Positions 4,990 to 51,870 of a DNA stretch of 64,000 nucleotides are shown here, piece by piece. Every line of letters starts with the position of its first letter. Position 1 is the stretch's first letter. The DNA lies in the NCBI RefSeq assembly GCF_001632365.1, contig NW_024468542.1, forward strand, positions 99,035 to 163,034, read 5' to 3'. The notes below the pieces were generated by a model, which did no database searches, was not told the DNA's origin, and saw only the letters and a program-made list of their open reading frames with translations. A program made the position numbers and the translations under genes. Source of the stretch: Laetiporus sulphureus 93-53. Its lineage: Eukaryota > Basidiomycota > Agaricomycetes > Polyporales > Laetiporaceae.

Positions 4990-7900
4990 CACATGACACT
5001 TCGCTGAAAGAAGATGGGGGGGCGCACAGACTCTGGCCTCGACGTCCCAAGAGCCCGCGAGGGTGGCATCTAGACCGCTCATGAAATTCGAATAGCTACC
5101 GCTGGACGTGGTTGAAGTCGCGTAAGGTGCCCTTGACCCATCAGAAGGAGGCAGTGAGGACCAGATTCCCACATTGCGAAGCGGATGTTGCGCGAAGCCG
5201 TACCCTATTCAGCCTAGGAACCACTCAGAAAGCAGGTGATCTTAACATCAGACCGGTTACCGCGCGAAGTCCATGAAGTGCAGGTCATGTTGGCGGGGCT
5301 AGAGCGAGGGTTAATGAAGCGACTCGCTCCCGAGACCGAAGAAAAACCGCCAGCGACGACGGTACCTTCGAATGCCCGACACCACCGACGGGGAACCCTG
5401 CGTCATTGGTCGCCGTCGAACGTAACCTAGAAATCGATGGATTCTGATGTACTGATTCGTTCACCGAGGTGCTGGTGTCTGCCTTGTGCCAAGCAGACTG
5501 AGGGTACTTAAAGCCAACCAACAGACTCGATGGAGCCAGCTGAGCATGAAGACTGATCCGTTAGTTGTCTATGCTTCACGACAGAGCTGACACTCAACAG
5601 AGGTTATCTTCGGCCCGTCGATCTAAGCCCGAGACTCGTGGGACAGCGTTTCTACTACAGGGGTGGACAAGGACATCGTTTCATTTGAGGGAGGCGCGAA
5701 GACCGGCGTGCTTCTGTTCAAAGAAGTGTCCATGGTATCTGAGTCATAAGGATCAATGCAAGGCCAGACAGATAGAAAAGATCAATCCGCCGTGAACGGG
5801 TTCTGTTGCATACGGAATGGGAATTTATGCCATCTGTAGTACATGCGCTTGAAGACAATCTGTCCACATGCAAAAGAGGGAGTACTTAGCGTATTCGCTT
5901 CTGATCCAGATATTGGTGAAGGACATGCACATCTCGCACGCATGCTCACCTCGCACATGCCTTCGGGAGCGCGTGAAATGGGTTCGTGTCTTCGCAAAGG
6001 CATTTCCTCCGTCGCCACCGTGACGACGATCAGCTGGCTTGACTTTCCGAAGTCTTTCCGATCAAGGTGGTCGTCCCTGGCACCTACATGCGTCGTCCTC
6101 CACTATGATGCTGCATAATTATAATTGAGGTTGTGCCACCTACGCTTCTCATATGGTTTAGGACATACGATTGAGCGACCGCGAATTGTCATGTGATCAC
6201 TCGGCTCGCGCTCACCGATTCACCTAATCACCTTGTCCAACGTGGGCACGACCATCGCCCGTGAGATGTCCTAGTGCCCTTGACTCGCTTATTCCGCGTC
6301 TGAACGCACGTTCTTGGACTTCTATCGAAAGCGCACCATCGGATTTTAAAATCATGTTGCACGCAGAATGCTCTAGGTCATCTGCGTCGTTGCAGTAAAC
6401 ACGACGTCTTCCCATCGCCAGTGACGCGGCTGATGCCCCGATATTCAATCCTTCCCGTGTTCTGCATTGCTGGGACACCTGATAATCGTGGGCTGCTGCG
6501 TATCTTTGTACTGCGACCCTGGAATATATAATGGCCTATATCCATTTTCTTATGAAGAAATGTATGAGCTCGCCATACGTATGAAGGGAGGACAAGTTAC
6601 CTGCTCGTCGGTGCCGAACCGCAGCTCAGGCCCGCGAGCCTGAGAATCGATCTGCCTGAGGCACCTCGTATCCGTTAACTGAGGATGACATCACCATATT
6701 GGTCCCACTGGCGATTGAGGTCCTGACCAGCCTCGTGACGAATCGAGGGCAGCGATCAGGGAACAATGCTTAATCTGCTGTATTCATCTCGCAATACGGA
6801 TGCGAGCTTTCTCCGATCTTGCGCCGAACACCACCTTCTACTACTTCTGCCGCCGTAGTGTCAATTCTGTTGGGTCAATGCATCCCCTCGTTGATGGCGG
6901 AGATCACCGCCAGGATTGATGAGACATTTCGGCACTGACACACTCCCATTGGTTCTTTCGGGGATGTTCTTTGCAGGTTGCTTCGCAATACATAAGTGCA
7001 GTTGATCCGGCCAATTGAAGATCAAGAGAACAACTGATTGGAGCCTGGGCAAACGGCCGAAGACCGTTCAGACGGTACGTTGAGACACGTTCAACCTGCG
7101 TATAGCAAACAATGTGCGCAAACGCTGTCGTCTCCAGTTCCGCCCAACGGATACCACACGTAATTCGTTGCACGGATATGTGTACGTCCGCTGCGTCTCT
7201 GGACGTTCTTTTTTAGGCATGTTGGCGATATGTGCCTTTCAAGGACTACAGGGACGTGAACTGGCAGGAGCAGGAATACGACACAAATTTGGCTGCAATC
7301 GGGACGACAGCTGGGAGCGATGACCGCTTGGATTGGTGAGCAGGATTGGTATGTGTCTCGTGGACAATTCGTCATGACGTTCTACCACGAACATCCTCTT
7401 GTTCTTCAGGTGTTTTGCGAGTATGAGGATTCATCCATCACAGCGGTCACTTCCACTTGAACTTCTCGTTCACATTGACATACCCGGTCATCCCGCTGCA
7501 TGTGCCTTGCTCATCTTCCTGGCTGCTATGTGATGCTAAAGCTCGCGCTTGCGCGTGTCGAGCGGAGCCGGTCGCTTCACCTGGCATTGCCTCGGCAGCT
7601 TTCTGCGTCCGCACTGTTCTGATATTCTGAGCCGTTGGTCTTCTGCCAACCCATCGGGCTCTTGGCAAGGCTATGTTTGTCATCTTGAATAGTTCCGAGA
7701 GAACCGTTAGCCAAATGAACTAAACGGTGATCCAGGAGAAACCACGGAGTATCCCTCGCACCCGAAGCATCCCGCCCTAGACCACATGGGGTCAGATGGC
7801 CACGGACGGATATTGTTGTCAGTTGCACGAACATAGCAAAAGCGGCAGAGCTGACCTGCGGACAAGCGCTTGATCTCGGCCTGCAGAGATTCAGATTCAC

Positions 7901-17815: not shown

Positions 17816-18529
17816 CTATGTAACATGCACTTCTGACAAACCGTGCTCATTGCGAAATTCCTCCCACTCAAGCCAGTTCTGCTCCACCGCCCGATAGACC
17901 GGTTTCCAACCCAGGCATGTATGGAACCCGCCCGTCCTTTCAGTTGTCCAATTCCGCGCTACGAAGTCCCCCCGCTCGAGAGTCACATCCGCCGAGCACA
18001 GCGTCCATTGCCTCAGGTAGTTGAAGCAGTGATGAATGTGCCCCTGATGTACAGGAGGCAAGCTGTTCCAACCGTCCTCGAGTGCAGAGCGTATGCTGCG
18101 CAGACAATGGAGCTGGTGGCACATGGGTACTGCGAACATGCGCTTTTCTGGCCCGAGCCGGACGTGATTGTCGCCTACGAGTGGCGCCGTCCATAGCCAC
18201 TCCTCGTACGCCTCTGGGGCCGTCAAGGAATAGTGCACGCTGTCCTCAACGAGGAGTTTGGTTGGTCCTGCGTCGACCGGGAACAACTCTGGATAGTCAC
18301 TGCCGATCCATGCTTCAAGGCTGTTAGTTGTATCGAAGGCTCACTACAAACGGTACTCACAGTGAGCCTCCATCGGCTCTGCATGCGTCCATCTCGGTGT
18401 CCTACGCAGACGCTTGGCGGCCCTCATCGTGTCCACAACATCCTTCAACGTGCTGTTGCAGATGGCAGACGCGACAATCAGGAGGCAGAGTACGCAAGAC
18501 AAAGTCCACGGGCTTGTCTGACCCGACAT
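17816..18529 (-). CDS. UstYa-family (DUF3328) oxidase, intact motifs
   Basis: UstYa-family proteins are small single-pass membrane oxidases. In fungal dikaritin RiPP pathways they cyclise or otherwise oxidise core peptides. The model has two exons, 18529-18357 and 18320-17816, phase 2, giving 225 aa. A hydrophobic anchor (WTLSCVLCLLIVASAIC) lies near the N-terminus. The lumenal domain carries WIGSDYPE, then CHQLHCLRSIR and GHIHHCFNYLRQ. These are the two HxxHC motifs that define the family, both complete. LCSADVTLE and a Trp-rich C-terminus (GWKPVYRAVEQNWLEW) also match. A start 14 codons upstream (18571) is possible. The gene is divergent from the acetyltransferase at 18803 and shares its upstream region. 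Oxidase of the nearby repeat precursor is an inference from position. Confidence 0.85.
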
Positions 18530-18802
18530 GATGGGGGAAGAAAGAAAGATGCGCAAGTCGGCGGGTTCCAAGAAGGTCAGTAGTCATGTCATATAAAATG
18601 GATGTGGTTATTCCTATCAGAGCGCCCTTCTTTGATGGAGCGGCTCTGCAGAACACGATGCGCCACATGGATTGCAGACTTCTGATCTTGATGCCGCGTG
18701 CACAGCTTGTCCCGGCAGCGAAGGCCGCCTTACTAATGAGCACATATAACGGATGCGTATTATTTGGCTCATCGCCTCACTCGATCCTAGTCAAACGGTA
18801 CC

Positions 18803-19854
18803 ATGTCATCGCTGACAATTACGCGCGTCGAACAACCCTCGCGTGAGCTCTGCTCTTCGTTCTGGCGATGCAGGCCAGACTGACTGTCCTCAGCAAAACT
18901 CATCGATGACTCCGTTAATCTATTCGTCGCCCTCATGAAGTCTGGTAAGGCAAGTATTCGTCTGAATGACAACGTGACTGAGGTCTGCCAGATCCCGCAA
19001 TCGAGAGTCTCTGCGGGGGAGACGTCAGCCTGGCGGGTCCGATGGCCAGAGCGATGCTCAATGCAGGCGTACTCGCGGGGGAGTACTATGCAGCGCTCGA
19101 CGAGAACGGCGAGCTGGCGGGTTTCACGCTCTGGATGCCACCCGGCCAGGAGATGTTCAGCACGTAAGTACTATTTTCCCGAGCGCTTCGGAAGCCAAAC
19201 ACCTTGTGCACAGGCAGGAACAACGCGACCTTGGCTTGACGGACTTCATGGCAAGGCTGCCGCCGGAAGGCAAAGAGTATTACAAGGACACCGTGCGTAC
19301 AGCCTTCTCAAATACGTCGGTTCTACATAGGGCTGCTGACCACGACCTCTGCAGTACCTGGCGGAGTTCCCAGGCTTTGTGAGCAGCTGTATCGGGCCAA
19401 CGGTGAGCATGGCTGTGTCCTTCATGCTAGGGTCGACTGTTCGGCGCTCATCTCTTGATGTCCAGGGTAAGGTGGATTCGTGGTGGCTTCATATGGCGAT
19501 GGTCCGGCAAGAAAGACAACAGCAAGGGATCGCGCGGTCACTTATTGGGCTTGTTCGGGACAAGGTGCTGCATTGTTCCGATCTTCCTGCATTAGGGTCC
19601 GTCTGCTGACGAATAGCTATTGTAACAGGCCAAGGAGAAAGGCGAGACGCTCGCGTGTAGCACAACGACACTGACGAATGCGAGTGCCGTAATTGTGGCC
19701 TTCTGGCATCCCACAATTTCTCATGCAATGCTGTTTTCAGGCATTGGTGTACAAGGCTCTCGGGTTCGATCTGAAGGGCGAGCGGAACATGCCTTCACCG
19801 TGGGGAGATTGGCCGCTCTACGTCTTTGCCCTAGATACGAAGTCTTCTGATTGA
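18803..19854 (+). CDS. GNAT-family N-acetyltransferase
   Basis: Eight exons: 18803-18842, 18894-18944, 18983-19163, 19214-19292, 19355-19402, 19466-19564, 19629-19688 and 19741-19854, giving 223 aa in one frame. The N-terminal half contains AGEYYAALDENGELAGFTLW, a typical beta-strand pair of the fold. The acetyl-CoA binding motif A is HMAMVRQERQQQGIARSL (Q/R-x-x-G-x-A), followed by motif B around ALVYKALGF. No signal peptide is present, so a cytosolic enzyme is expected. The exon 7 donor is either GTAATT, as used here, or a GC donor 9 bp earlier; both keep the frame. It is divergent from the UstYa gene at 17816-18529. Substrate is unknown; a tailoring or self-protection role in the cluster is inference. 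Confidence 0.8.
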
Positions 19855-19879
19855 TGAAACTTTGCCCGAAGCTTCTGTA

Positions 19880-20400
19880 TGTATATTATTCTGGCTCGGG
19901 GCGCCTGGAGCAGGTTTCGAGGCTCGAGAGATAGTCGGAGATAGCTCGAGTGAGCTGAGTATGAGGACTGGGCTGTGTTGTTAGACAGCGTGATTGGGAA
20001 TGATGCGCGAGCTCGCCGATGCAAGTAGTCTGCGTGATGGGCGCAGAAAGGGCAAATTCAAAGGTGGAAATGGAAACGCCACAAGGTCGCAGCGCCGGCG
20101 CTTGTAATCGACCTTGTCTGATGGCGATGTCCACCATCCAGACAACTGCACAACTTGAAGGAAATCAAACTTCTGATTTTCGACTCTGAATATCAACGAT
20201 TCCTTACGAATGGAGCATGGGCATCTTGCTTGAAATTCGATAGTTCATACTGCTATCAACATCATGGTTCTTCCTCGCATCGCTTTCCTGCCATCTTCCT
20301 CCGCACCGCCTCCGACCACAAGGTTCCTCAACCCTGTCGAGGACTTCTTCTTCTTCCAGGCTGTAGCTACCGTGTGCAAATTGCGCAGGGTTCAAGGACA
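19880..20400. other. Intergenic region between acetyltransferase and membrane protein
   Basis: No gene seen. It should contain the promoter of the plus-strand gene at 20403. Confidence 0.4.
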
Positions 20401-20402
20401 TT

Positions 20403-21408
20403 ATGCACGACCGTAGTGAGGAAGTGATCGCACTGTTGGACGCAGGGTCTCGAGAGGAGGACGACACGCCGGAGAAAGGTGGGCGACAGTTCGCTATGGA
20501 TAGCTCGTCGTCGTCGAGGCTGACAACGTTCGCCAGCATCCCATGCACGGAGCCAGTCGCAAACCATTATCTCCTCTCTACTTCATGGGACAACTGGCAT
20601 CCTCGTGCTCTTCATTGTTCTCGACCTGATCGCCTTTCTGTATGTGTTCCGCTCCGTCCTAGCTTTGTCCGGGCCTTCCACGGATGAATTCGAGTTTCGA
20701 AATCCGTACATTGGGTTGGACGAGCTGTATGCATCGGGACGAGTGAATGCGTCGCGGTACGATCCCATCGTCAACGTGCCTCGCGTAGCGGCACAGGTCA
20801 GCAGCACCGAGCCTAACAAGGTCGGCGTCGAGGACGAGCATCGGTACCTGAGCAATTTCGGTACCATGACTCCATTGGATCGCCATCTCCAGGTCTCAAG
20901 CACGGTACGTACACCAGCTCGGTTCTGTCTGGCTAAGCTTACACGTCCTCGCCGTCCTCGCAGATACACACCATTCTTCAGTTCCGAACGATGGACTATG
21001 GCATGGAAAGCTGTGCGTTGGCTCTTCGTCTTCCCTCTCCAGAGGACAGCGAGTCCCTCCAGCTCGCGGAAGGCGCTAGAGACGTGCATCTCGACGTCTG
21101 CGCGCTCGATGTCTCACGTCAGCTCAAACCGCGCTCACTGTCATGGGCGACCCGCCCGCGCTGTCAAACACACGTGGGCACTCTCGTTGCCGGACCGGGC
21201 GAGGAGGTGCGGTTCCCCGAATTTCCGTGCAGCTGGGGATCCCTCCACACGTATGAGATTTCCTGCAGCGCAGACTCTCCCGATTGTCTAGTGGACGTGT
21301 GGGCAACCAGGAACGGGACTTGGGGTGAGTTATTGATTCGTTTGTCTGCACTTAGGAGACCCTGATCTTGTTCCAGGAATATTCATGTATCAGTACCAGA
21401 CCGTCTAA
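20403..21408 (+). CDS. Single-pass membrane protein, unknown function
   Basis: Exons 20403-20478, 20537-20904, 20964-21324 and 21377-21408 give 278 aa. A short acidic cytosolic N-terminus (SEEVIALLDAGSREEDD) is followed by one strong membrane span (GILVLFIVLDLIAFLYVF). The outer domain contains NPYIGLDELY, NVPRVAAQVSSTEP, DYGMESCALALRLP, LDVCALDVS, PEFPCSWGSLHTYEISC, and ends TWGIFMYQYQTV. Several paired Cys suggest disulfides in the secretory pathway. I recall similar architecture in many Agaricomycete hypothetical proteins but cannot name a characterised member. Its topology (short tail in, domain out) is the same as the UstYa proteins on both sides, so both would act in the same compartment. 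Confidence 0.75.
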
Positions 21409-21419
21409 CAGACTCCGCT

Positions 21420-22890
21420 CACCAGGAGAGAGTCTGCGTTGTCAACTAGAGTTCATTGATGTTACTATTCATTTTGCCAATTCCGTGATGACAAAGCAGC
21501 GAACTGGTCGGATTGTACATTGTAAGAGATCAGCTGCGCTACGGAAGAATCACGACCTCGTAGTGCCAAAGTGAGTGATTTATATTGGACTAGTCAAGAT
21601 CTCCCCTCGGAACTGAATTTCCTCTCAATCTATCAAGGAAGCAGTGTTCGCAGGAGGCCCCGGCGCAGTCTTGCGCGCTCAGGGCTCGATTTCGGAGTGC
21701 CCTCCGACAGCCTTCTTCCGGGCGGTCCATTGCTCTGCCCCATTCAGTCATTTGACTAATTCCCTAGTCAATCAAGACTCATTGGATCCATCTGGCGTGC
21801 TGACCTGACAAGTCATAATTCGAAATTAACGGAAGGTGCAACTGTCTGTTCCCAATGGTTACGCAAAGGATATCGCTACTTGCATAAAGCTTGCAGACAT
21901 CGTGAGTACTCCGTTCATGCTCTTATAATTCGAACGTGATGCTGAATGATGTCGCAAGTGCACAATCACCCATGCTAATCATATCGTGTTGCCTCGATTC
22001 ACCTGGTATCAGGTCTAGTGCAAAAAAAGTAGGTGACATATGGCTCGCATCCTATTGAGAGAATGGTGCCATCAGCTTCGAATTTTCGGGCCGCCTTCGA
22101 GACTGAATCAGTACCGAGCGCTGGGAAGACGGGTGATCGTCGGTTCGCATCAGTCAGTGGGATTTGATGTTCGTGTGTGTGTCATGCTCCACTTAGGTAC
22201 TGTTCTGACAGCATAGCCATAGGAGATGTGTTCGCACCGGTGTGTACATCGTTGGCTAGAACACAGCCTCTACTGAATTTGCATTTCTCTCGCGGTCCGG
22301 CGACTTTGGATGCGCCCTGGGTGTCGGTGAAGTTCTGAAACAAAGAAGAAATGAACGGAAGATCTTTCGATGGTGATTGTATTTTTGACCTTCCGCTTAG
22401 GTTGGTGATCAACGAATCAAGATGTGGATTTTCCTCCTCGCTTCGATGTTCTACTCCCGATGTCCCGTTTTCTGAATTCAGACAAACAAAGAGCGATGTA
22501 TACCACACTCTCAGAGGCACAGAACAGTGGTTTCTACCCATTACTATCAATGGGGTCACAGTACAAACATATTACGGAAATGATACATTCACAAGTGGGA
22601 CCGGGGGTGACATCTTATCAAGACACAGGTACACGGCTAGAACCCAACAGTCAAACCGAAACATGCCCGCAAATACAATCCGAAGCGTCCGGACTTCTCT
22701 CAACGACAACTTTGAATTCGGGGGGTGCTCAACGGCAGTAGCAACACAAACATGATGATGATTCTGGAACCTCCACTAATGGGTTCCCTCTTCGGGCATA
22801 TGCGCATGTAACGCGGACATACGCACGTCCGTCTGGGATAATGATGAGTGATATTCAATTTCTATTGCTCGTTCTCGACGAACCTATGAT
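21420..22890. other. Intergenic region, no supported gene
   Basis: Open frames at 22351-22755 (+) show no family features, start context or splice partners. This stretch separates the membrane protein from the 3' end of the repeat precursor. Confidence 0.4.
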
Positions 22891-22905
22891 CAATGGGTCC
22901 AACAA

Positions 22906-23471
22906 CTAAGCAGGAGACAGGAATACTGCATCAGTAGGCGATACTGGATGTGCTGCGGGAGGATGATGAGCCGTACACCCCCTGATTTTAGAGGCGTGCA
23001 CTTGCCTTCGTCACGCCGCTCGCGGGGACGCAGGAAGACAGCATCTACAGGCGACGTCTCTTCTGCGAGAAAAAATGAGCCAAATATTGATTACGACGGT
23101 ATTTCGGACTTGCCTGCGGCACGTCTCTCTGCGGGGCGTAAGAAGATGGCGTCCGTGGGCGATGCCCTTCTCTCGACTGAGAGGGATAAGGGGTTGAGGA
23201 CCAGACTCTGACGACGATCTCGCAAAACCGACTCACCAGTGGCGGGTGCTAGGAATACTGCATCGATAGGCGATACTCCTCGAGCAACTATCACAAGGGA
23301 CATGCCGGTGAGCAGCGTTGAATGATTACTGCCTTCTGACGTACCTTGTGCACGCCTGGCGGGACGAAGGAAAATTGCATCCGTAGGAGCGGCAGCTCGC
23401 TCCTCTACAGGAATTGCATAGACAGCAGAAAGAGCACAGGCGACAGCGAAGAGAGCGGTAAATACTTTCAT
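22906..23471 (-). CDS. Secreted five-repeat peptide precursor (RiPP-like)
   Basis: Five exons, 23471-23345, 23287-23237, 23176-23114, 23062-23006 and 22952-22906, encode 114 aa. Exon 1 has a signal peptide (MKVFTALFAVACALSAVYA). Every exon then carries one copy of a core: APTDAIFLRP, SPIDAVFLAP, SPTDAIFLRP, SPVDAVFLRP, SPTDAVFLSP. P-x-D-A-(I/V)-F-L-x-P is invariant. An RR pair lies between each successive copy, suiting Kex2-type cleavage. All four introns are phase 1, so each internal exon (51, 63, 57 bp) is a symmetric module; introns 3 and 4 use GC donors (GCAAGT). The gene lies between two UstYa-family genes. This is the build of a dikaritin RiPP precursor, although the cores have no Tyr. 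An unmodified secreted Kex2 peptide is the alternative. I know no described family with this core. Confidence 0.85.
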
Positions 23472-23520
23472 TTTGACCGAAGGGGGGGGGACGTTGTGCT
23501 CACTCGTCCTACCGCTTAGG

Positions 23521-23530
23521 TCTATATACC
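23521..23530 (-). promoter_or_regulatory. TATA box of the repeat precursor
   Basis: GGTATATAGA on the minus strand, 50 bp upstream of the precursor start codon at 23471. Confidence 0.5.
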
Positions 23531-23539
23531 CTCACGCAG

Positions 23540-24570
23540 TGGCTGAAACTCTTCGAAGCCTCTATGGATATACATATACAGTCATGCTGTTCTGTATTGC
23601 AGTGCAGCCGAACGCCCGCGCATCGTTGACTGAATCTTCGCCCGGTCCCGCACGGCAACTACTATCAGCGGCCAACTAGCGCACTCCGTTTCCTGATCAT
23701 GATGGGTTCCGCGCGCGCGCGCGATTCTCGCAGAAGAAGCACATGCTGAATGGAAGTTGGCTGTTATCTGATGCATGATGCGTGAGTTCTGCTCTCTTCC
23801 GAAACGGGCAATTATCATCAGTGCATGTGGAACGTGCGTGTTCGTTTCACCGCTCCTTCACTTTCATGTCCTCGTCTGCCAATTACGCTGCCGTATCCGG
23901 ATCCTTTATGAGCGTTGCGACGTAGGCTTGGCGGACGCAGTGCCACAAGCCTTTGCCAGCATGCGCCACAATGGACGACACGATCGCGCCATCATTCTAG
24001 AGCAGCTCTATCTTCGGTGAGTTGTACCCGTCCATCAGAAGGTGTCCAATGTACAGCCCATACTTACGCTATAACTGATGTCATTTATGAATAGTCGTTG
24101 TACTAGGGCGCGCTTGTGCCGTATTGGAGAACTCTGCGTTTCCGGCACGTTAGCTCTCGGGACGCCGGGACTGCCATCAACGGCGGCTGTCGGTCGCTCC
24201 TCGTGGAATAGTTGACAGTACACGGCACGTTTGATAGGATAGGATCTCTAGGTATGTGCGCGGCACTAGCATCTCGAGTGTTAGTCGTTTTGCCTTCACG
24301 GCGATGTACTTTGCAGGAATAGATCAAACGTTAAATTGCCGATGATGTCCTTTCATCGAACGCTCTGCGCAGCCGAAGAAGTGAAACTTGGTGGAATGTC
24401 CGCTTACAGAATAGCGTAATCCGGTTACTGGCGACTTGAGGCTCGTTTTGCAAGCCACTACGAGCGAACCTTGATCTTTACACTCGGGCGACCCTATTCA
24501 GCAGCAGCATCTTCGAGAAGGCAAGGCTACTATATTTCAATGGACAAGATGGTTTAATCACGGATGTATT
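23540..24570. other. Intergenic region, no supported gene
   Basis: No gene recognised. A short (GC)n tract lies at about 23709-23721. Confidence 0.4.
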
Positions 24571-24582
24571 ATCTTGTGCACG

Positions 24583-25283
24583 TCAGAGCCCTCCGGACAT
24601 GGATTCCTGCGCCTCTCGCCACTGAGCGTATTCCAGCTGGTTCCTCTCAATCTCCTTGTACACCGCTCCCCAATCCCTGCATTCATATGTCCCATACAAG
24701 TCGATGGGCGCGGTATTCGACGGCGCAAGGAATGGCTCTAGCTGTAGATCTCCACGACACAACACCATCTGCTTCACGTAGTTCAGGCAATGCCTCGCCA
24801 GCTCCGACCGGGCGCTCTCATCGTCCTTGTCGCGGTCGAACAGGAGCTCTTCGCGGATGACGTTCAGGCAGCGCAGCTGGTGGAACATGGAGACGGTGAA
24901 CGGCTGACGATGGGGCCCGAGGTGGAGGAGCCCGGACTCGCCGGGGACGATAGAGGACCACTCGGCGATGCCGTCGGGAGTGTCGAGTTGGAAATGCATC
25001 GAGTTGTCGGAAGCCATGAGGACGTTGGGGATTTCGATGGGCCAAGCTTCTGGATAGTCATCTCCGAGGTATGCTACGGCATTGGAGCTAATAGTGAGTT
25101 ACGTGTCATTGCACGCATGTTGTCGCCTTAAAGGGCCTGCTTACTGTATTCTCTCGTGACCTCCCACATAAGTGTCTTGAGCCATATCGTCGCGCAAACC
25201 TTCACAATGAGGCTGAAGCCTACAAGCGCGAAGCTGAGAGTCGTCGGTGAGGCATGTAGGCGCTTTACGAAAGAGCTGTGCAT
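24583..25283 (-). CDS. UstYa-family (DUF3328) protein, altered HxxHC motifs
   Basis: Two exons, 25283-25145 and 25073-24583, phase 1, give 209 aa. The N-terminus has a membrane anchor (LSFALVGFSLIVKVCATIWL). The outer domain has YLGDDYPEAWP, FHQLRCLNVIREEL, ARHCLNYVKQMVLCRGD and a C-terminal GAVYKEIERNQLEYAQW, all in family order. Both signature motifs are altered. The first is HQLRC where HQLHC is expected, and the second is LARHC where HxxHC is expected, so each has lost one of its two histidines. The reading frame is otherwise clean, which argues for a diverged, perhaps non-catalytic or partner, subunit rather than a dead gene. UstYa proteins are often encoded in pairs. The gene lies 1.1 kb upstream of the precursor promoter on the same strand. 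Confidence 0.8.
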
Positions 25284-28957: not shown

Positions 28958-30156
28958 TCACAGGTAGCGGTCCGTCACCAACGCGTGCCGGCCCCGGATG
29001 TTCATGAACGAATACTAGAAGAACCGCTCCGTCAGCCACACACCAACTCACCGCTCGCCCACTCACCTCGCTCAGATCCGGCCTCACGCCCTTGATCAGG
29101 TTCACGTACACGAGATTCGGCTCGGCGAAGAATGGGCGCAGGCCCGCAGCCTCGAGGCTCTCCCACCACGAGTTGAACCGGGCGAACGTGTGGTACCCAC
29201 TGTCCGGGCGCGCGTGGAGCTCGATCTGCAGCTGGCCGATGGGGAGGACGGGCTGCGGAGGTGGGGGAGGAGGGCCGTGTGGGTGCCGTGGAGGGGGAGG
29301 GAGAGCTGAGGCGTTGGCCCGGGTGACGTGGTCGATGAAAGTAGACAGCGCAGCAAATTCCGCGCCCTCGATGTCGATCTGCGGGAGTTGGATTAGCGAT
29401 ACACAGGCGAGCAGCACGCGACACGCACCTTGAGCACGTCGATGAACTCGTGCCCGTTCATCTGCATGAGGCTCGCAAGCGACCACACCTGCGTGCCGTC
29501 CGCCCACACGCCGTCCTGCGGCCCCAGTGCCCACGGCGCAAAGTGCGCCCTCGCCCTCAGCTCCTCGTCCTGCTCGATCTCCGGCCCAAACGCGCGCACG
29601 CTAAAGTCGTATCCCCACACCTGGCATCCGGGCACGGCGCGCAGGAGCGCAGCCTCGAAGGAAGACTCGTTGTTCACCCCGAAAGAGTAGACGACGCATG
29701 AGGGCTGCGCTGCGAGCCGGGCGAGCCCGCAGAGCCACTTGCCGCCGTCGCCGAGGGTGCCGACGCGGTCGACGCGGTGCGGGCACTGGAAGGCGGGGAT
29801 GTAGAAGTCCCAGAGGGTGTAGAAATCGTCGCGTAGTGGGAACCTGGTAGTGTACGGGAACTTAGGGTCAGCGTTAATGCGGGCGCGTAAGAAGATAAGA
29901 AAGCGCACGCCTCTACGCGCTCGGGTGTGGGCCCCCACTTGCGCACCATCATCTGACGCTCACGCAGGACCTGTTCGTAGCGTGCCTCCTCCTCCATGAC
30001 TGCCCAGCGTGTTGCATCGACGCCCCTGCCTCTGCTGAAGGAGCCGCCGTGGCCATTTGGGGGGCCTGGCGGGAAGAAGCAAAAGACGAGGAGAACGCTG
30101 ATGACTGTGAGGGCGGTGAGCAGCGGATGGCGGTAGAGGAAATGCTTTGGCGTCAT
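28958..30156 (-). CDS. METTL24-like membrane-anchored methyltransferase
   Basis: Four exons, 30156-29917, 29860-29429, 29378-29067 and 29014-28958, give 346 aa. A type II anchor (LLTALTVISVLLVFCFF) lies at about residues 12-28. The body contains YIPAFQCPHRVDRVG, GDGGKWLCGL, PSCVVYSFGVN, ESSFE, LKIDIEGAE and a C-terminal YSFMNIRGRHAL. This order matches the Methyltransf_22 / METTL24 group; GDGGKW and the IDIEGAE stretch correspond to cofactor-binding regions of SAM methyltransferases. The predicted topology puts the enzyme in the secretory lumen, where UstYa proteins and Kex2 act. A tailoring role for the nearby precursor is therefore possible, but this family is widespread in fungi and unlinked function is equally possible. 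A Pro-rich insert (PPPPPRHPHGPPPPPP region) is unusual. Confidence 0.85.
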
Positions 30157-30169
30157 TCTGGCTGCCTAG

Positions 30170-31160
30170 CGGGGTATGCAAGCGAAGGATGGAGGCCTGT
30201 TGAAGTCGGAGAGGTTGAGAACGGTGGGCTAGGGGAAATGTTAATGAGAGGAGTTGGGCGAGACGACAGGGGTAACGACGATGACTTGGCGGGGGCCCCG
30301 TTTCATGTCAGCCATGCTCGTCGTCTGCAGCGACAGCTCCGCTCACCGAGCGCTGTTTCTAGAACCCCAGTTGCGCAGCGCAAAATCCCCGGGAGACACT
30401 CGTGGTTTGCTCGAACCCTCTGAGTCGGTCTCTCGGGTATTCATGATTTTGATGTCTATCAGGTTATCAACCATGCCAGGATTGACGGCGACACGACGCG
30501 CTCAACGGAAAAAATAATGAACACTGGATTCATCCTTTCGGAATGTGACGTGAAGGCGGGGACCACCTCATCTGCGCTTCGGTGAGCTACGCGATCACTA
30601 GCACCCCTGAAAGAAGTCCAGCCGGCTTGTAATATTATTGACATACGCGATGATCAGCGTAGAACAATCGCACGCCTCACTGCCCTGCCTCTTCGCTTCA
30701 TGTTTCGCCTCTTCGCTGCTCAACGCTTGCTAGCCGACTGCTAGAGCGACTACCCAGAATCGCTGCTCGTAGCAAGTTGTCCTGTCGAGACGGCACCGTT
30801 CAATCTGTAGACGCCAGCAACCAGATCTTTGCTTTCTTAAAGTTCCTGCAAGCCGGAGAATGCATATACGTTTTCCTAATCTTGCCATGCTCGGAGAATG
30901 TGAAGGCGATGATTTGTGCTTGTGGCCACTCTACCAGCCTCTCTTCCAGGCTTTATGATGAACTTGTCTTTCATCACCCACCCAGAGCTTTCGCCTCGAA
31001 GAGACTCAAAAAAGCGTGAAACGTCGCCCTCCTCAGCCTCTTTATTATCGCCATCCGAGAGGCAGCGGATCGTCGAAATAAGTTTTCGCTCCTGAGTAAC
31101 AAGGCGAATTGCCCTCTCAATCGCAGGCGAAAAGGATAGCAACATAAGACACATCAAGAT
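30170..31160. repeat. Intergenic DNA with a direct repeat flanking a gene fragment
   Basis: No gene. The stretch 30720-30890 (CTTGCTAGCCGACTGCTA, ACTACCCAGAAyCGyTGCTCG) recurs at about 31360-31530. The stretch near 31104-31160 (GAATTGCCCTCTCAATCGCA) recurs near 31652-31710. The two copies bracket the methyltransferase fragment. Confidence 0.65.
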
Positions 31161-31166
31161 AGGTTC

Positions 31167-31337
31167 GAAAGAGTAGACGACACACGAGGGCTGCGCGGCG
31201 AGCCGGGCGAGTCCGCAGACCCACTTGCCGCCGTCGGCGAGGGTGCCGACGCGCTCGACGCGGTGCGGGCACTGGAAGGCCGGGATGTAGAAGCCCCAGA
31301 GGATGTAGAGGACGCTGCGCGACGGAAACCTGGCAGT
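31167..31337 (-). pseudogene. Methyltransferase gene fragment
   Basis: About 170 bp that copies the start of exon 2 of the METTL24-like gene (YIPAFQCPHRVERVG, ADGGKWVCGLARLAAQPSCVVYSF). It ends abruptly at TCTTTC, exactly where the parent continues with GVN. No other exons are present. The sequence differs only slightly from the parent, so the copy is fairly recent. Confidence 0.8.
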
Positions 31338-31774
31338 GGATGGCATACTTCTACACTGCTCAACGCTTGCTAGCCGACTGCTATAACGATTACCCAGAAC
31401 CGTTGCTCGCAGCAACTTCTCCCTTCGGGATGGCACCGTCCAACATGTAGACACCGGCAATCAGGCTTTTACTCCCTCAAAGTCCCTGCAGACCAGAGAG
31501 TGCACATCCGTCTTCCTAATGTTCAGAGACTCTGGAGAGCGTGAAGCGTCTTGCCCTTCTCAACCAGCAGATCATCGACCGCGCGGCTGGGTACCCGTGC
31601 AAGACAATTTCTGCAACTCAGCTTGCAAAGTATCTATATCTCCCTGTTGGCGAATTGCCCTCTCAATCGCAGGTGAAAAGAGTAGCTACATAAGACACAT
31701 CGAGATAGTTTCAAAAACAAGTCCACAGATTCCAGTCAGAAACTAACAACGACCGACTCCCCATCAATCTGCCT

Positions 31775-48002: not shown

Positions 48003-49181
48003 CTAGTGGGGTCTGTGCGGCCTCGGAAGGCGAGACGCACCCATAGGCCTGTGCATACTCGGGTAGTAGCTGAGACGACCTGGTGCATGCATACCGGCCG
48101 AGTCGCGTGCGAAGACATCGACGAACTCCCTGGTCTTCTTCTTGTCCCTGCAGAAACTAATGAGAATGCACGAGGGCCAGTAGTCAGTGCGAACCCTTAC
48201 TCGAAGATGTCATGGACGACAGAGACGCCATCCTTCTCGAGGCCTTCCCAGTTGACTGCACCACTGCCCAATGGCACGGCGCGGGCAATGAGCTCGAGAA
48301 GCTCGCGCTTGCTCTTCTTGTCTCCATCACTGTAGAAGCATCATGAATCAATGGCTGGGCACTGATGAACGGGAGACGGGACGACATACTCGAAAATGTC
48401 CTTGACGACATTGACACCGTCATGTACCAGGCCTTCCCAGTTTACGGCGCCACTGCCACCTAGCGGGACTGAACGAGCCATCAAGTCATCCAGCTCGCGC
48501 TTGTGGCCATCACTTATGAAAGACTCATCAATGATCGTATCCAGGCCGTTGTCGTCAGCGGTGCTTACTCAAAGATGTCTTTGACGACGTGGACACCGTC
48601 AGTAACCAGGCCCTCCCAGTTTACGGCACCGCTGCCCGCCGGGACTGAGCGAGCCATTAGGTCATACAGCTCGCGCTTGTGGCCGTCCCTAGCAGACCGT
48701 TCTCGTTAGACGAGATGTATGTTGAATGGCACCGGTAAAACTCACTCGAAGATGTCCTCAGCGACGTGAACGCCATCGTGCACCAGGCCTTCCCAGTTGA
48801 CAGCGCCACTGCCCTGGGGAATGGAGCGAGCGTAGTATTCATATAGACCCCGCTTGCTTTTCTTCTTGTCCTTGTTCTTCTTGCTTTTGTGAGCGCTGGA
48901 TGTAACCCTCAATCAGCTAGTCGTGCATTGTCATAGACTGTCAGGACATACCTGGAAAGGGCCTTTGCAGCTTTGAAAGCATCCTCGGCGACACTGAACC
49001 AGCCAAATGCCTCGCTGCCATCTTGAGAAGCACGGGCAGCGAGCTCTTGTAGGAGTTCATCGCGTGCGACAAGATCGGAATAGCTGGATACCGCTCGACG
49101 CTCAAGGGTCAAAGGGACGGACAAAACGGGCGTGGCAGCAACCACCGAGACAACGAGAACGAGAACGGTGGAAGTACGCAT
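48003..49181 (-). CDS. Secreted repeat-exon precursor 2 (Kex2-type)
   Basis: Six exons, 49181-48952, 48895-48746, 48688-48569, 48512-48390, 48329-48201 and 48147-48003, give 298 aa. The signal peptide is about 21 residues (TSTVLVLVVSVVAATPVLS). Exons 2-5 each encode one copy of the same unit: a KR pair, ELxDLMARSVPxGSGAVNWEG, then LVxDGVxVVKDIFE. Exon 1 holds a diverged copy (LLQELAARASQDGSEAFGWF). Exon 6 is a short tail rich in Arg, Pro, Tyr and His. All five introns are phase 2 and cut the same codon (GA|G or GA|T), so each repeat is a symmetric module. Basic sites (SKR, HKR, HKR, SKR) precede each copy, suggesting Kex2 release of about 38-residue amphipathic peptides. I know no named family; fungal Kex2-processed repeat proteins such as Ustilago Rep1 are the nearest concept. 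Confidence 0.85.
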
Positions 49182-50826: not shown

Positions 50827-51870
50827 TCAAGCTTGCGACCAGTTGATGGGTGCCGGCGATGCCGGACGATTGGTCGGCCACTTGTTAATGTTAGAGAGAA
50901 CATTGAGAGTGGCAATCGCCGCGCTGCCATCGTCGTCTGCGCGGGCAAGAAGCTCCTCTAGCTCCCGAGCATGATGCGCACTATGAGGATGGCGCGTCAG
51001 AATTCGTTCCATTAGAGATATAAAACAGCTTACCGGTAGCTGTCGAATCGAGGAGAAGCATGTGTCGGCGTGTGGTACACTGCAGGACCGTGTTCCATGT
51101 ACAGGGTATTCTTGCGGGCGATCAGATCGGACAGATCGCGGCTCTTCTTATTGCTAGTCTTGTCTCTATATAGCGGAAGACCGTCAGCATTGCACAAGAC
51201 GAAATGGATTATGAGCAGCAACGCACTCGACGAAGTGACCGAGACCCTCCAACCCATCGCCTATGAGACTGAAGATGCCAAGCGCCTCACTGCCTTGCTG
51301 TGGAGGCGCAGCGGCGGCGCGAGCTGCGAGGTCATAAGCAATGGCGTAGTCACGAGCCGTGAGGTCACGCTTGCTGCTCGTCTTGGACCTGGAACGCCAA
51401 GTATGATTAGCTGATGAATTCGTTTCACAGGCAGCAGCTTACTCGATGAGATGTCCGAGCCCCTGCAGCCCATCACCTATGAGGCTGAAAATTCCAAAGG
51501 CCTCACTGCCTTGCTGGGGAGGCGCTGCAGTGGCGCGAGCTGCGAGGTCGTAAGCGATGGCATATTCACGAGCCGTGAGGTCACGCTTGCTGCTCGTCTT
51601 GGACCTAGAACACCAAGTATGATTAGCTGATGATTTCGTTTCACATGCAGCAGCTTACTCGATGAGATGTCCGAGGCCCTGCAGCCCATCACCGATGAGA
51701 CTGAAGATGCCAAGCGCCTCACTGCCCTGTTGGGGAGATGCTGCAACTGCACGTGCTGCAATGTCCTGCGCGATGCTGTATTCACGAGCCGACAGCGGTG
51801 CGGACATTGCGGGAGAAGCCATCAGGCAAAGAAGGGCGACAAGGGTGGAGAATGGAGCCTTGAACATCAT
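50827..51870 (-). CDS. Secreted repeat-exon precursor 3, paralogue of precursor 2
   Basis: Five exons, 51870-51659, 51604-51443, 51388-51227, 51165-51034 and 50980-50827, give 273 aa. The signal peptide is about 24 residues (FSTLVALLCLMASPAMSA). Exons 1-3 each carry one unit: TAREYAIAYDLAARA, a PPQQGSEALGIF stretch, then SLIGDGLQGLGHLIE. Exons 2 and 3 begin with SKTSSKR, a Kex2-type site. Exon 4 starts DKTSNKKSRDLSDLIARKN and then changes to a Tyr/His/Pro-rich spacer. Exon 5 carries a diverged copy (ARELEELLARADDDGSAA). All introns are phase 2 at GA|G-type junctions, as in precursor 2, and GSEA replaces GSGA at the same place in the unit. The two genes are tandem duplicates on the same strand with a common leader. 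Exons 2 and 3 and their introns are nearly identical, indicating recent internal duplication. Confidence 0.85.

What the first reader, a model, noticed from the sequence alone, without database searches (positions are those of the whole stretch)
17816..25283. Candidate basidiomycete UstYa-type RiPP cluster with a new core peptide family
A secreted precursor with five SPxDA(I/V)FLxP cores separated by RR sites lies between two UstYa/DUF3328 genes. A GNAT acetyltransferase and a single-pass membrane protein lie between them. UstYa proteins oxidatively modify Kex2-released repeat cores in ustiloxin, asperipin, phomopsin and victorin. Those cores normally supply Tyr; here the only aromatic residue is Phe, so the chemistry, if any, would differ (for example at Phe, Asp or Leu side chains).
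Basis: partly seen in the sequence, partly recalled or inferred. Interest (0 to 1): 0.92.

Follow-up and report, generated by a model that had tools for sequence, protein, structure and literature searches.

The report
Mushroom peptide cluster with paired oxidases
A bracket fungus carries a gene for five near-identical secreted peptides, one per exon, between two copper-oxidase-type genes, one of which belongs to a mushroom branch that has lost half of its metal-binding histidines.

Summary
A five-exon minus-strand gene (22906-23471) encodes a secreted 114-aa precursor with one [SA]P[TIV]DA[IV]FL[RAS]P core per exon and RR in each of the four gaps. UstYa2 equals LAESUDRAFT_728090 of Laetiporus sulphureus 93-53; the precursor has no match in the protein collection. 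The cores look strongly constrained (pooled dN 0.19, dS 1.58).

New point: the two UstYa genes differ in kind. UstYa1 and its 38 listed relatives keep all four copper-motif histidines. UstYa2 and 119 listed relatives keep one histidine per motif; the other two positions are R/K (118 of 120) and never His. All four such genes found in this genome sit beside a canonical-type gene, and 6 of 8 named assemblies have both types on one contig.

Best reading: a dikaritin-like pathway whose Phe-centred peptides are oxidised by a canonical/half-site UstYa pair. Processing, oxidation and heterodimer are inferred. Lack of Tyr is not unprecedented: victorin joins Phe to Leu. Against: Agaricomycete KEP peptides measured so far were linear or minimally modified, and no precursor relative was found.

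The parts
17816..18529 (-). UstYa1, canonical DUF3328 type (HQLHC and HIHHC), 221 aa; exons 18529-18361 and 18312-17816
   Evidence: model; Pfam UstYa 52.4 bits on exon 2; 39 hits in the protein collection, its own copy included; motifs
18803..19854 (+). GNAT acetyltransferase, eight exons by hand model; part in the pathway unknown
   Evidence: script, last intron corrected by hand to a GC donor; Pfam Acetyltransf_1 24.9 bits, cut-off 20.7
20403..21408 (+). Single-pass membrane protein with But2 C-terminal domain; first intron is a hand guess; part in the pathway unknown
   Evidence: 33.5 bits, cut-off 24.2; only match of that family found in the genome, and a lower-bound search
22906..23471 (-). 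Precursor, 114 aa: signal peptide, five cores, RR in each of four gaps; exons 23471-23345, 23287-23237, 23176-23114, 23062-23006, 22952-22906, one core per exon, phase-1 introns
23521..23530 (-). TATA-like box (GGTATATAGA) about 50 nt before the precursor's ATG
   Evidence: read in the sequence; no promoter test
24583..25283 (-). UstYa2, half-site DUF3328 type (HQLRC and LARHC), 209 aa; exons 25283-25145 and 25073-24583
   Evidence: model; identical to LAESUDRAFT_728090 (P0041); Pfam UstYa 60.7 bits
29393..31460 (-). Two Methyltransf_22 frames (29393-29959 and 30876-31460), 4 to 6 kb beyond UstYa2; possible outer members only
   Evidence: 61 and 34 bits, cut-off 22.4; two of three matches found in the genome

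Best explanation
This is a dikaritin-like pathway. The precursor enters the secretory route; Kex2 cuts after the RR sites and Kex1 removes the basic residues, releasing five Phe-centred peptides that share P-x-D-A-[IV]-F-L-x-P. In the Golgi lumen UstYa1, a canonical DUF3328 copper enzyme, oxidises them, most likely by joining the Phe side chain to a nearby aliphatic carbon (Leu, Ile/Val or Thr), or else by desaturation or hydroxylation. UstYa2, which keeps the fold and the cysteines but one His per motif, works with UstYa1 as a non-catalytic or one-copper partner, probably in a heterodimer. Shown: gene anatomy, RR sites, constraint on the cores, two UstYa types and their closeness in genomes. 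Inferred: processing, oxidation, the residue modified, the heterodimer.
For: Five constrained cores: pooled dN 0.19, dS 1.58; four cores differ from core 3 at 8 residues against 24.4 (sd 2.2) under random base changes, as low in 0 of 20000. RR in all four gaps. UstYa genes on both sides. Canonical motifs in UstYa1 and 38 relatives, half-site in UstYa2 and 119 relatives, with the two further cysteines kept in both. Type B rows form one side of a branch when the motif columns are left out (SH-aLRT 98). All four type B genes found in the genome lie 0.25 to 6.5 kb from a canonical-type gene. Six of 8 named assemblies have both types on one contig. CctR needs Cu, its His/Cys motifs and a dimer (PMC12435403, main text). 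Victorin has a Phe-Leu link (PMC9233826, passage). A Tyr-type KEP also lies near a UstYa gene of this genome.
Against: No relative of the precursor was found in the protein collection or elsewhere in the genome, although relatives of both UstYa genes are widespread. Only 103 of 1680 Basidiomycota KEPs had a DUF3328 neighbour in the survey (PMC7329392, passage). Measured Agaricomycete KEP peptides are linear or minimally modified (PMC9769878). CctR was shown to be a homodimer, not a mixed pair. Two of 8 assemblies do not show both types on one contig. No tyrosinase or P450 was seen among the open frames tested nearby, but only long frames were tested. No transcript, no peptide data.
Confidence: 0.55

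Rival explanations
1. The precursor is an ordinary KEP: its peptides are secreted linear or nearly so, as signals or defence peptides, and the UstYa genes serve another substrate.
For: KEP peptides measured in Agaricomycetes were linear or minimally modified (PMC9769878, abstract and passages); 1577 of 1680 Basidiomycota KEPs have no DUF3328 neighbour (from 103 of 1680, PMC7329392); no Tyr in the cores.
Against: It lies between two UstYa genes about 6 kb apart, in a genome with some 18 UstYa genes in 38.6 Mb.
Confidence: 0.27
2. UstYa1 and UstYa2 act on the peptides one after the other as independent enzymes; UstYa2 is a one-copper or otherwise altered oxidase, not a partner subunit.
For: UstYa2 relatives keep H in 119 and H in 120 of 120 at the two remaining positions, more than a dead scaffold would need; several UstYa homologues are needed in phomopsin biosynthesis (PMC10512285, passage).
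Against: Alanine mutants of the conserved His and Cys killed CctR (PMC12435403); type B was never seen away from a canonical-type gene in this genome (4 of 4).
Confidence: 0.12
3. The five exons are a decayed or chance repeat and no such protein is made.
For: No annotated protein found; no transcript; two GC-AG introns.
Against: Repeats exceed shuffles; five open exons in one phase with near-saturated synonymous change and few amino-acid changes.
Confidence: 0.06

Closest known systems
Dikaritins (ustiloxin, phomopsin, asperipin-2a, victorin)
   Same: Signal peptide, repeated cores between dibasic sites, UstYa genes beside the precursor (PMC10512285 and PMC9233826, passages)
   Different: Core without Tyr (like victorin, unlike the others); one core per exon; one UstYa of half-site type; product unknown; basidiomycete
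KEX2-processed repeat proteins (KEPs) of Agaricomycetes
   Same: Secreted precursor with short repeats and RR sites
   Different: UstYa pair around it; not among the annotated proteins searched, while the large survey started from annotated proteins (PMC7329392, passage)
CctR, ApnU, AprY copper DUF3328 enzymes
   Same: UstYa1: membrane helix, two HxxHC motifs in adjacent helices (PMC12435403)
   Different: UstYa2 and its listed relatives lack two of four histidines; CctR is a homodimer

Membership tests
Dikaritin (KEP precursor plus UstYa) | Secreted precursor with repeated cores separated by KR/RR/KK | tested here: met
   five cores, RR in four gaps; signal peptide by hydropathy only
Dikaritin (KEP precursor plus UstYa) | DUF3328 gene with two HxxHC motifs beside the precursor | tested here: met
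   UstYa1 HQLHC and HIHHC; criterion from PMC12048977, passages
Dikaritin (KEP precursor plus UstYa) | Core residue for cross-linking (Tyr, or Phe as in victorin) | tested here: inconclusive
   no Tyr, one Phe per core; Phe precedent in PMC9233826
Dikaritin (KEP precursor plus UstYa) | Cyclised or otherwise oxidised product | not testable with these tools
   needs mass spectrometry
Copper DUF3328 enzyme, UstYa1 | All four His and both Cys of HxxHC(x)nHxxHC | tested here: met
   UstYa1 and 38 relatives, 39 of 39
Copper DUF3328 enzyme, UstYa2 | All four His and both Cys of HxxHC(x)nHxxHC | tested here: not met
   HQLRC and LARHC; two of four His missing, both Cys present; still over the UstYa Pfam cut-off
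Ascomycete alpha-pheromone type KEP | Series of XA/XP dipeptides right after each Kex2 site | tested here: not met
   residues after RR up to the next core: AQVARGV, A, AAEET, DEAHPV; criterion from PMC6339444, passages

The most novel reading that the evidence does not exclude
Agaricomycetes use an obligate UstYa heterodimer: a canonical two-copper subunit plus a conserved subunit that has lost one facing pair of histidines and kept the other, serving dedicated precursors, some built as one core per micro-exon and therefore easily missed by surveys of annotated proteins. Here the pair would put a Phe-centred cross-link on a new core family.
Probability: 0.4. Interest if true: 0.8.

Novelty: new variant of a known kind. 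Interest (0 to 1): 0.6.

Why it matters
Basidiomycete KEPs with a UstYa neighbour are a small group in the published survey (103 of 1680), and none of the papers I opened describes a characterised product of one. This locus is a compact, testable example with a new Tyr-free core. The half-site UstYa clade makes a sharp question testable: does a DUF3328 oxidase work as a mixed pair, and does one lost His pair mean one lost copper? The micro-exon precursor shows how such genes can escape surveys that start from annotated proteins.

Tried and rejected
Relatives of the precursor: a protein search gave 342 candidates and no hit at E up to 10. A weak match to Pfam DUF6798 (22.4 bits, cut-off 26.9) was dropped; that family gave 0 matches in the genome, so even the window's exons did not score alone. 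The core-like sequence on contigs C121 and C123 shows no repeats and was taken as chance.

Precursors beside the other UstYa genes: repeat scans of 15 fetched loci (L016-L030) found only the Tyr-type KEP on C30. A signal-peptide plus one-intron plus KR scan of 15 loci, 123 kb with some overlap, gave 5 places (0 in the window, where the five-exon precursor does not fit the one-intron rule); the best is a 50-aa single-core candidate on C55. A stricter signal rule did not list it, so it is a lead only. A C13 start had no clear splice or KR site. C31 gave only UstYa starts.

Solved relatives: none of note by sequence (best E 0.51, none up to 1) or by fold for UstYa1 (best E 2.5).

Full report
What is there. 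UstYa2 is identical over 209 aa to LAESUDRAFT_728090 of Laetiporus sulphureus 93-53, which names the organism and agrees with my splice; the contig length given there (411699) differs slightly from the one here (408626), so the assembly may be another version. Between them, also minus, lies a five-exon gene (22906-23471) for a 114-aa protein with a signal-like start and five ten-residue cores, one per exon. All four introns are phase 1, so exons can be duplicated without breaking the frame. Each of the four gaps between cores holds RR.

More than chance? In the window the core pattern occurs five times against 0.25 expected. Six of ten core positions never change in amino acid, yet five of these six use two to four codons. 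Pooled over the ten pairs of cores pS is 0.66 and pN 0.165 (dS 1.58, dN 0.19). Four cores differ from core 3 at 8 residues against 24.4 (sd 2.2) if the same numbers of base changes fell at random; 0 of 20000 trials were as low. The repeats were picked for being alike, which lowers pN, but that does not explain near-saturated synonymous sites. The peptide seems to have been held by selection for long.

Is the precursor known? The protein collection holds UstYa2 from public annotation but nothing that matches the precursor: 342 candidates, none at E up to 10. That search reaches only proteins of 0.55 to 1.75 times its length. In the genome only the window's own exons match. The large KEP survey started from annotated proteins (PMC7329392, passage), so such a gene could be missed. 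A full-text search for six core strings found 0 papers.

The two UstYa genes differ in kind. The family mark is HxxHC(x)nHxxHC. For CctR the authors measured two copper ions per monomer, alanine mutants of the conserved His and Cys lost activity, and the enzyme works as a dimer, a homodimer (PMC12435403, main text). In a joint alignment UstYa1 and the 38 other proteins listed for it have all four His and both Cys (39 of 39). UstYa2 and the 119 other proteins listed for it have, in order, H in 119, R or K in 118 and never H, C in 120, then never H (L in 91), H in 120 and C in 120 of 120. The search found 131; 11 were not listed and not examined, and the proteins were found by likeness to UstYa2, so they are not a random sample. 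The two further cysteines are also kept: 39 and 37 of 39 (two gaps) in type A, 120 and 119 of 120 in type B.

Tree. With the motif columns left out, the 35 type B rows form one side of a branch (SH-aLRT 98); the 40 type A rows do so with 77 (quick method, 80 rows: UstYa1, UstYa2, 36 of 38 type A relatives, 31 of 119 type B relatives, 11 frames of other UstYa genes of this genome). Relatives under 140 aa were dropped and most type B relatives were not used. The three canonical partners on C55, C31 and C13 have long branches and their place inside A is unsure. UstYa frames of C93, C79 and C30:202431 were not in the tree.

Pairing. The genome has 22 exon-level UstYa matches, about 18 genes by my grouping. 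Four are type B: in the window and on C55, C31 and C13. Each lies near a canonical-type gene, at 6.5, 0.25, 0.29 and 3.5 kb between matched stretches; for the C31 partner only the second motif was seen. A fifth gene, on C5, has other changes (RQLDC, QSGHC) and no second UstYa match on its contig. In Pleurotus ostreatoroseus the contig has 46860 bases and the tags are EIP86_004048 and EIP86_004051. Same contig is not the same as adjacent.

Structure. The models put the two motifs in two adjacent helices in both proteins (UstYa1, 164-aa database copy: helices 62-79 and 86-106, mean pLDDT 73; UstYa2: membrane helix 13-43, helices 108-124 and 137-152, mean pLDDT 82). In such a hairpin the equal residue sums (65+94 = 68+91 in UstYa1; 111+141 = 114+138 in UstYa2) suggest that the two lost positions face each other, as do the two kept ones. 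If so, type B has lost one metal site whole and kept the other.

How it most likely works. Secretion, Kex2 cutting at RR, Kex1 trimming, then oxidation in the Golgi by the UstYa pair. Lack of Tyr does not exclude cross-linking, since victorin joins a Phe side chain to Leu (PMC9233826, passage). Against this: peptides measured from Agaricomycete KEPs were linear or minimally modified (PMC9769878, abstract and passages), and only 103 of 1680 Basidiomycota KEPs have a DUF3328 neighbour, where the survey's author already suggested that cyclisation may be rare or may use other motifs (PMC7329392, passage).

Neighbours. The GNAT and the But2-domain membrane protein lie inside the pair; the But2 match is the only one found in the genome by a search whose counts are lower bounds. 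Two Methyltransf_22 frames lie 4 to 6 kb beyond UstYa2 and are two of three matches in the genome. Whether any of them belongs to the pathway is open. Other flanking genes were looked at only through long open frames, so short-exon genes were missed.

What is in print. HQLRC was in 0 papers, and DUF3328 together with heterodim- in 0, in a library of open-licence papers only; the two papers on ApnU and on victorin that I tried were not held. The half-site type may therefore be described elsewhere.

Noticed in passing
L022 about 7074-7530 (+), contig C30 about 205073-205530: A Tyr-type KEP with ten or so repeats such as VDDTPEIYKR and a signal-like start upstream lies about 2 to 4 kb from a UstYa gene (C30:202431-203128): a more classical dikaritin-like candidate in the same genome.
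   Followed up: partly
L019, contig C55 67432 to 67225 (-): A 50-aa candidate single-core precursor (signal-like start, phase-1 intron, KR, then GEYKGPTLALCF to the stop) about 0.9 kb from the C55 type B UstYa match. The same scan gave four other, poorer places.
   Followed up: partly
contig C5 981309-981596 (-), L027: A UstYa frame with both motifs changed in another way (RQLDC, QSGHC), outside the type B clade.
   Followed up: no
L018, contig C55 64888 (-): A secreted-looking 246-aa frame near the C55 UstYa pair whose start reads like an alpha/beta hydrolase (recalled; the domain search of it failed).
   Followed up: no
window 48237-48831 and 51242-51747: Two further stretches with three to four repeats of about 180-216 bases that read as repeats in frames of both strands; not examined.
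   Followed up: no
window 29393-31460 (-): Two neighbouring Methyltransf_22 frames, two of the three matches to that family found in the genome.
   Followed up: partly
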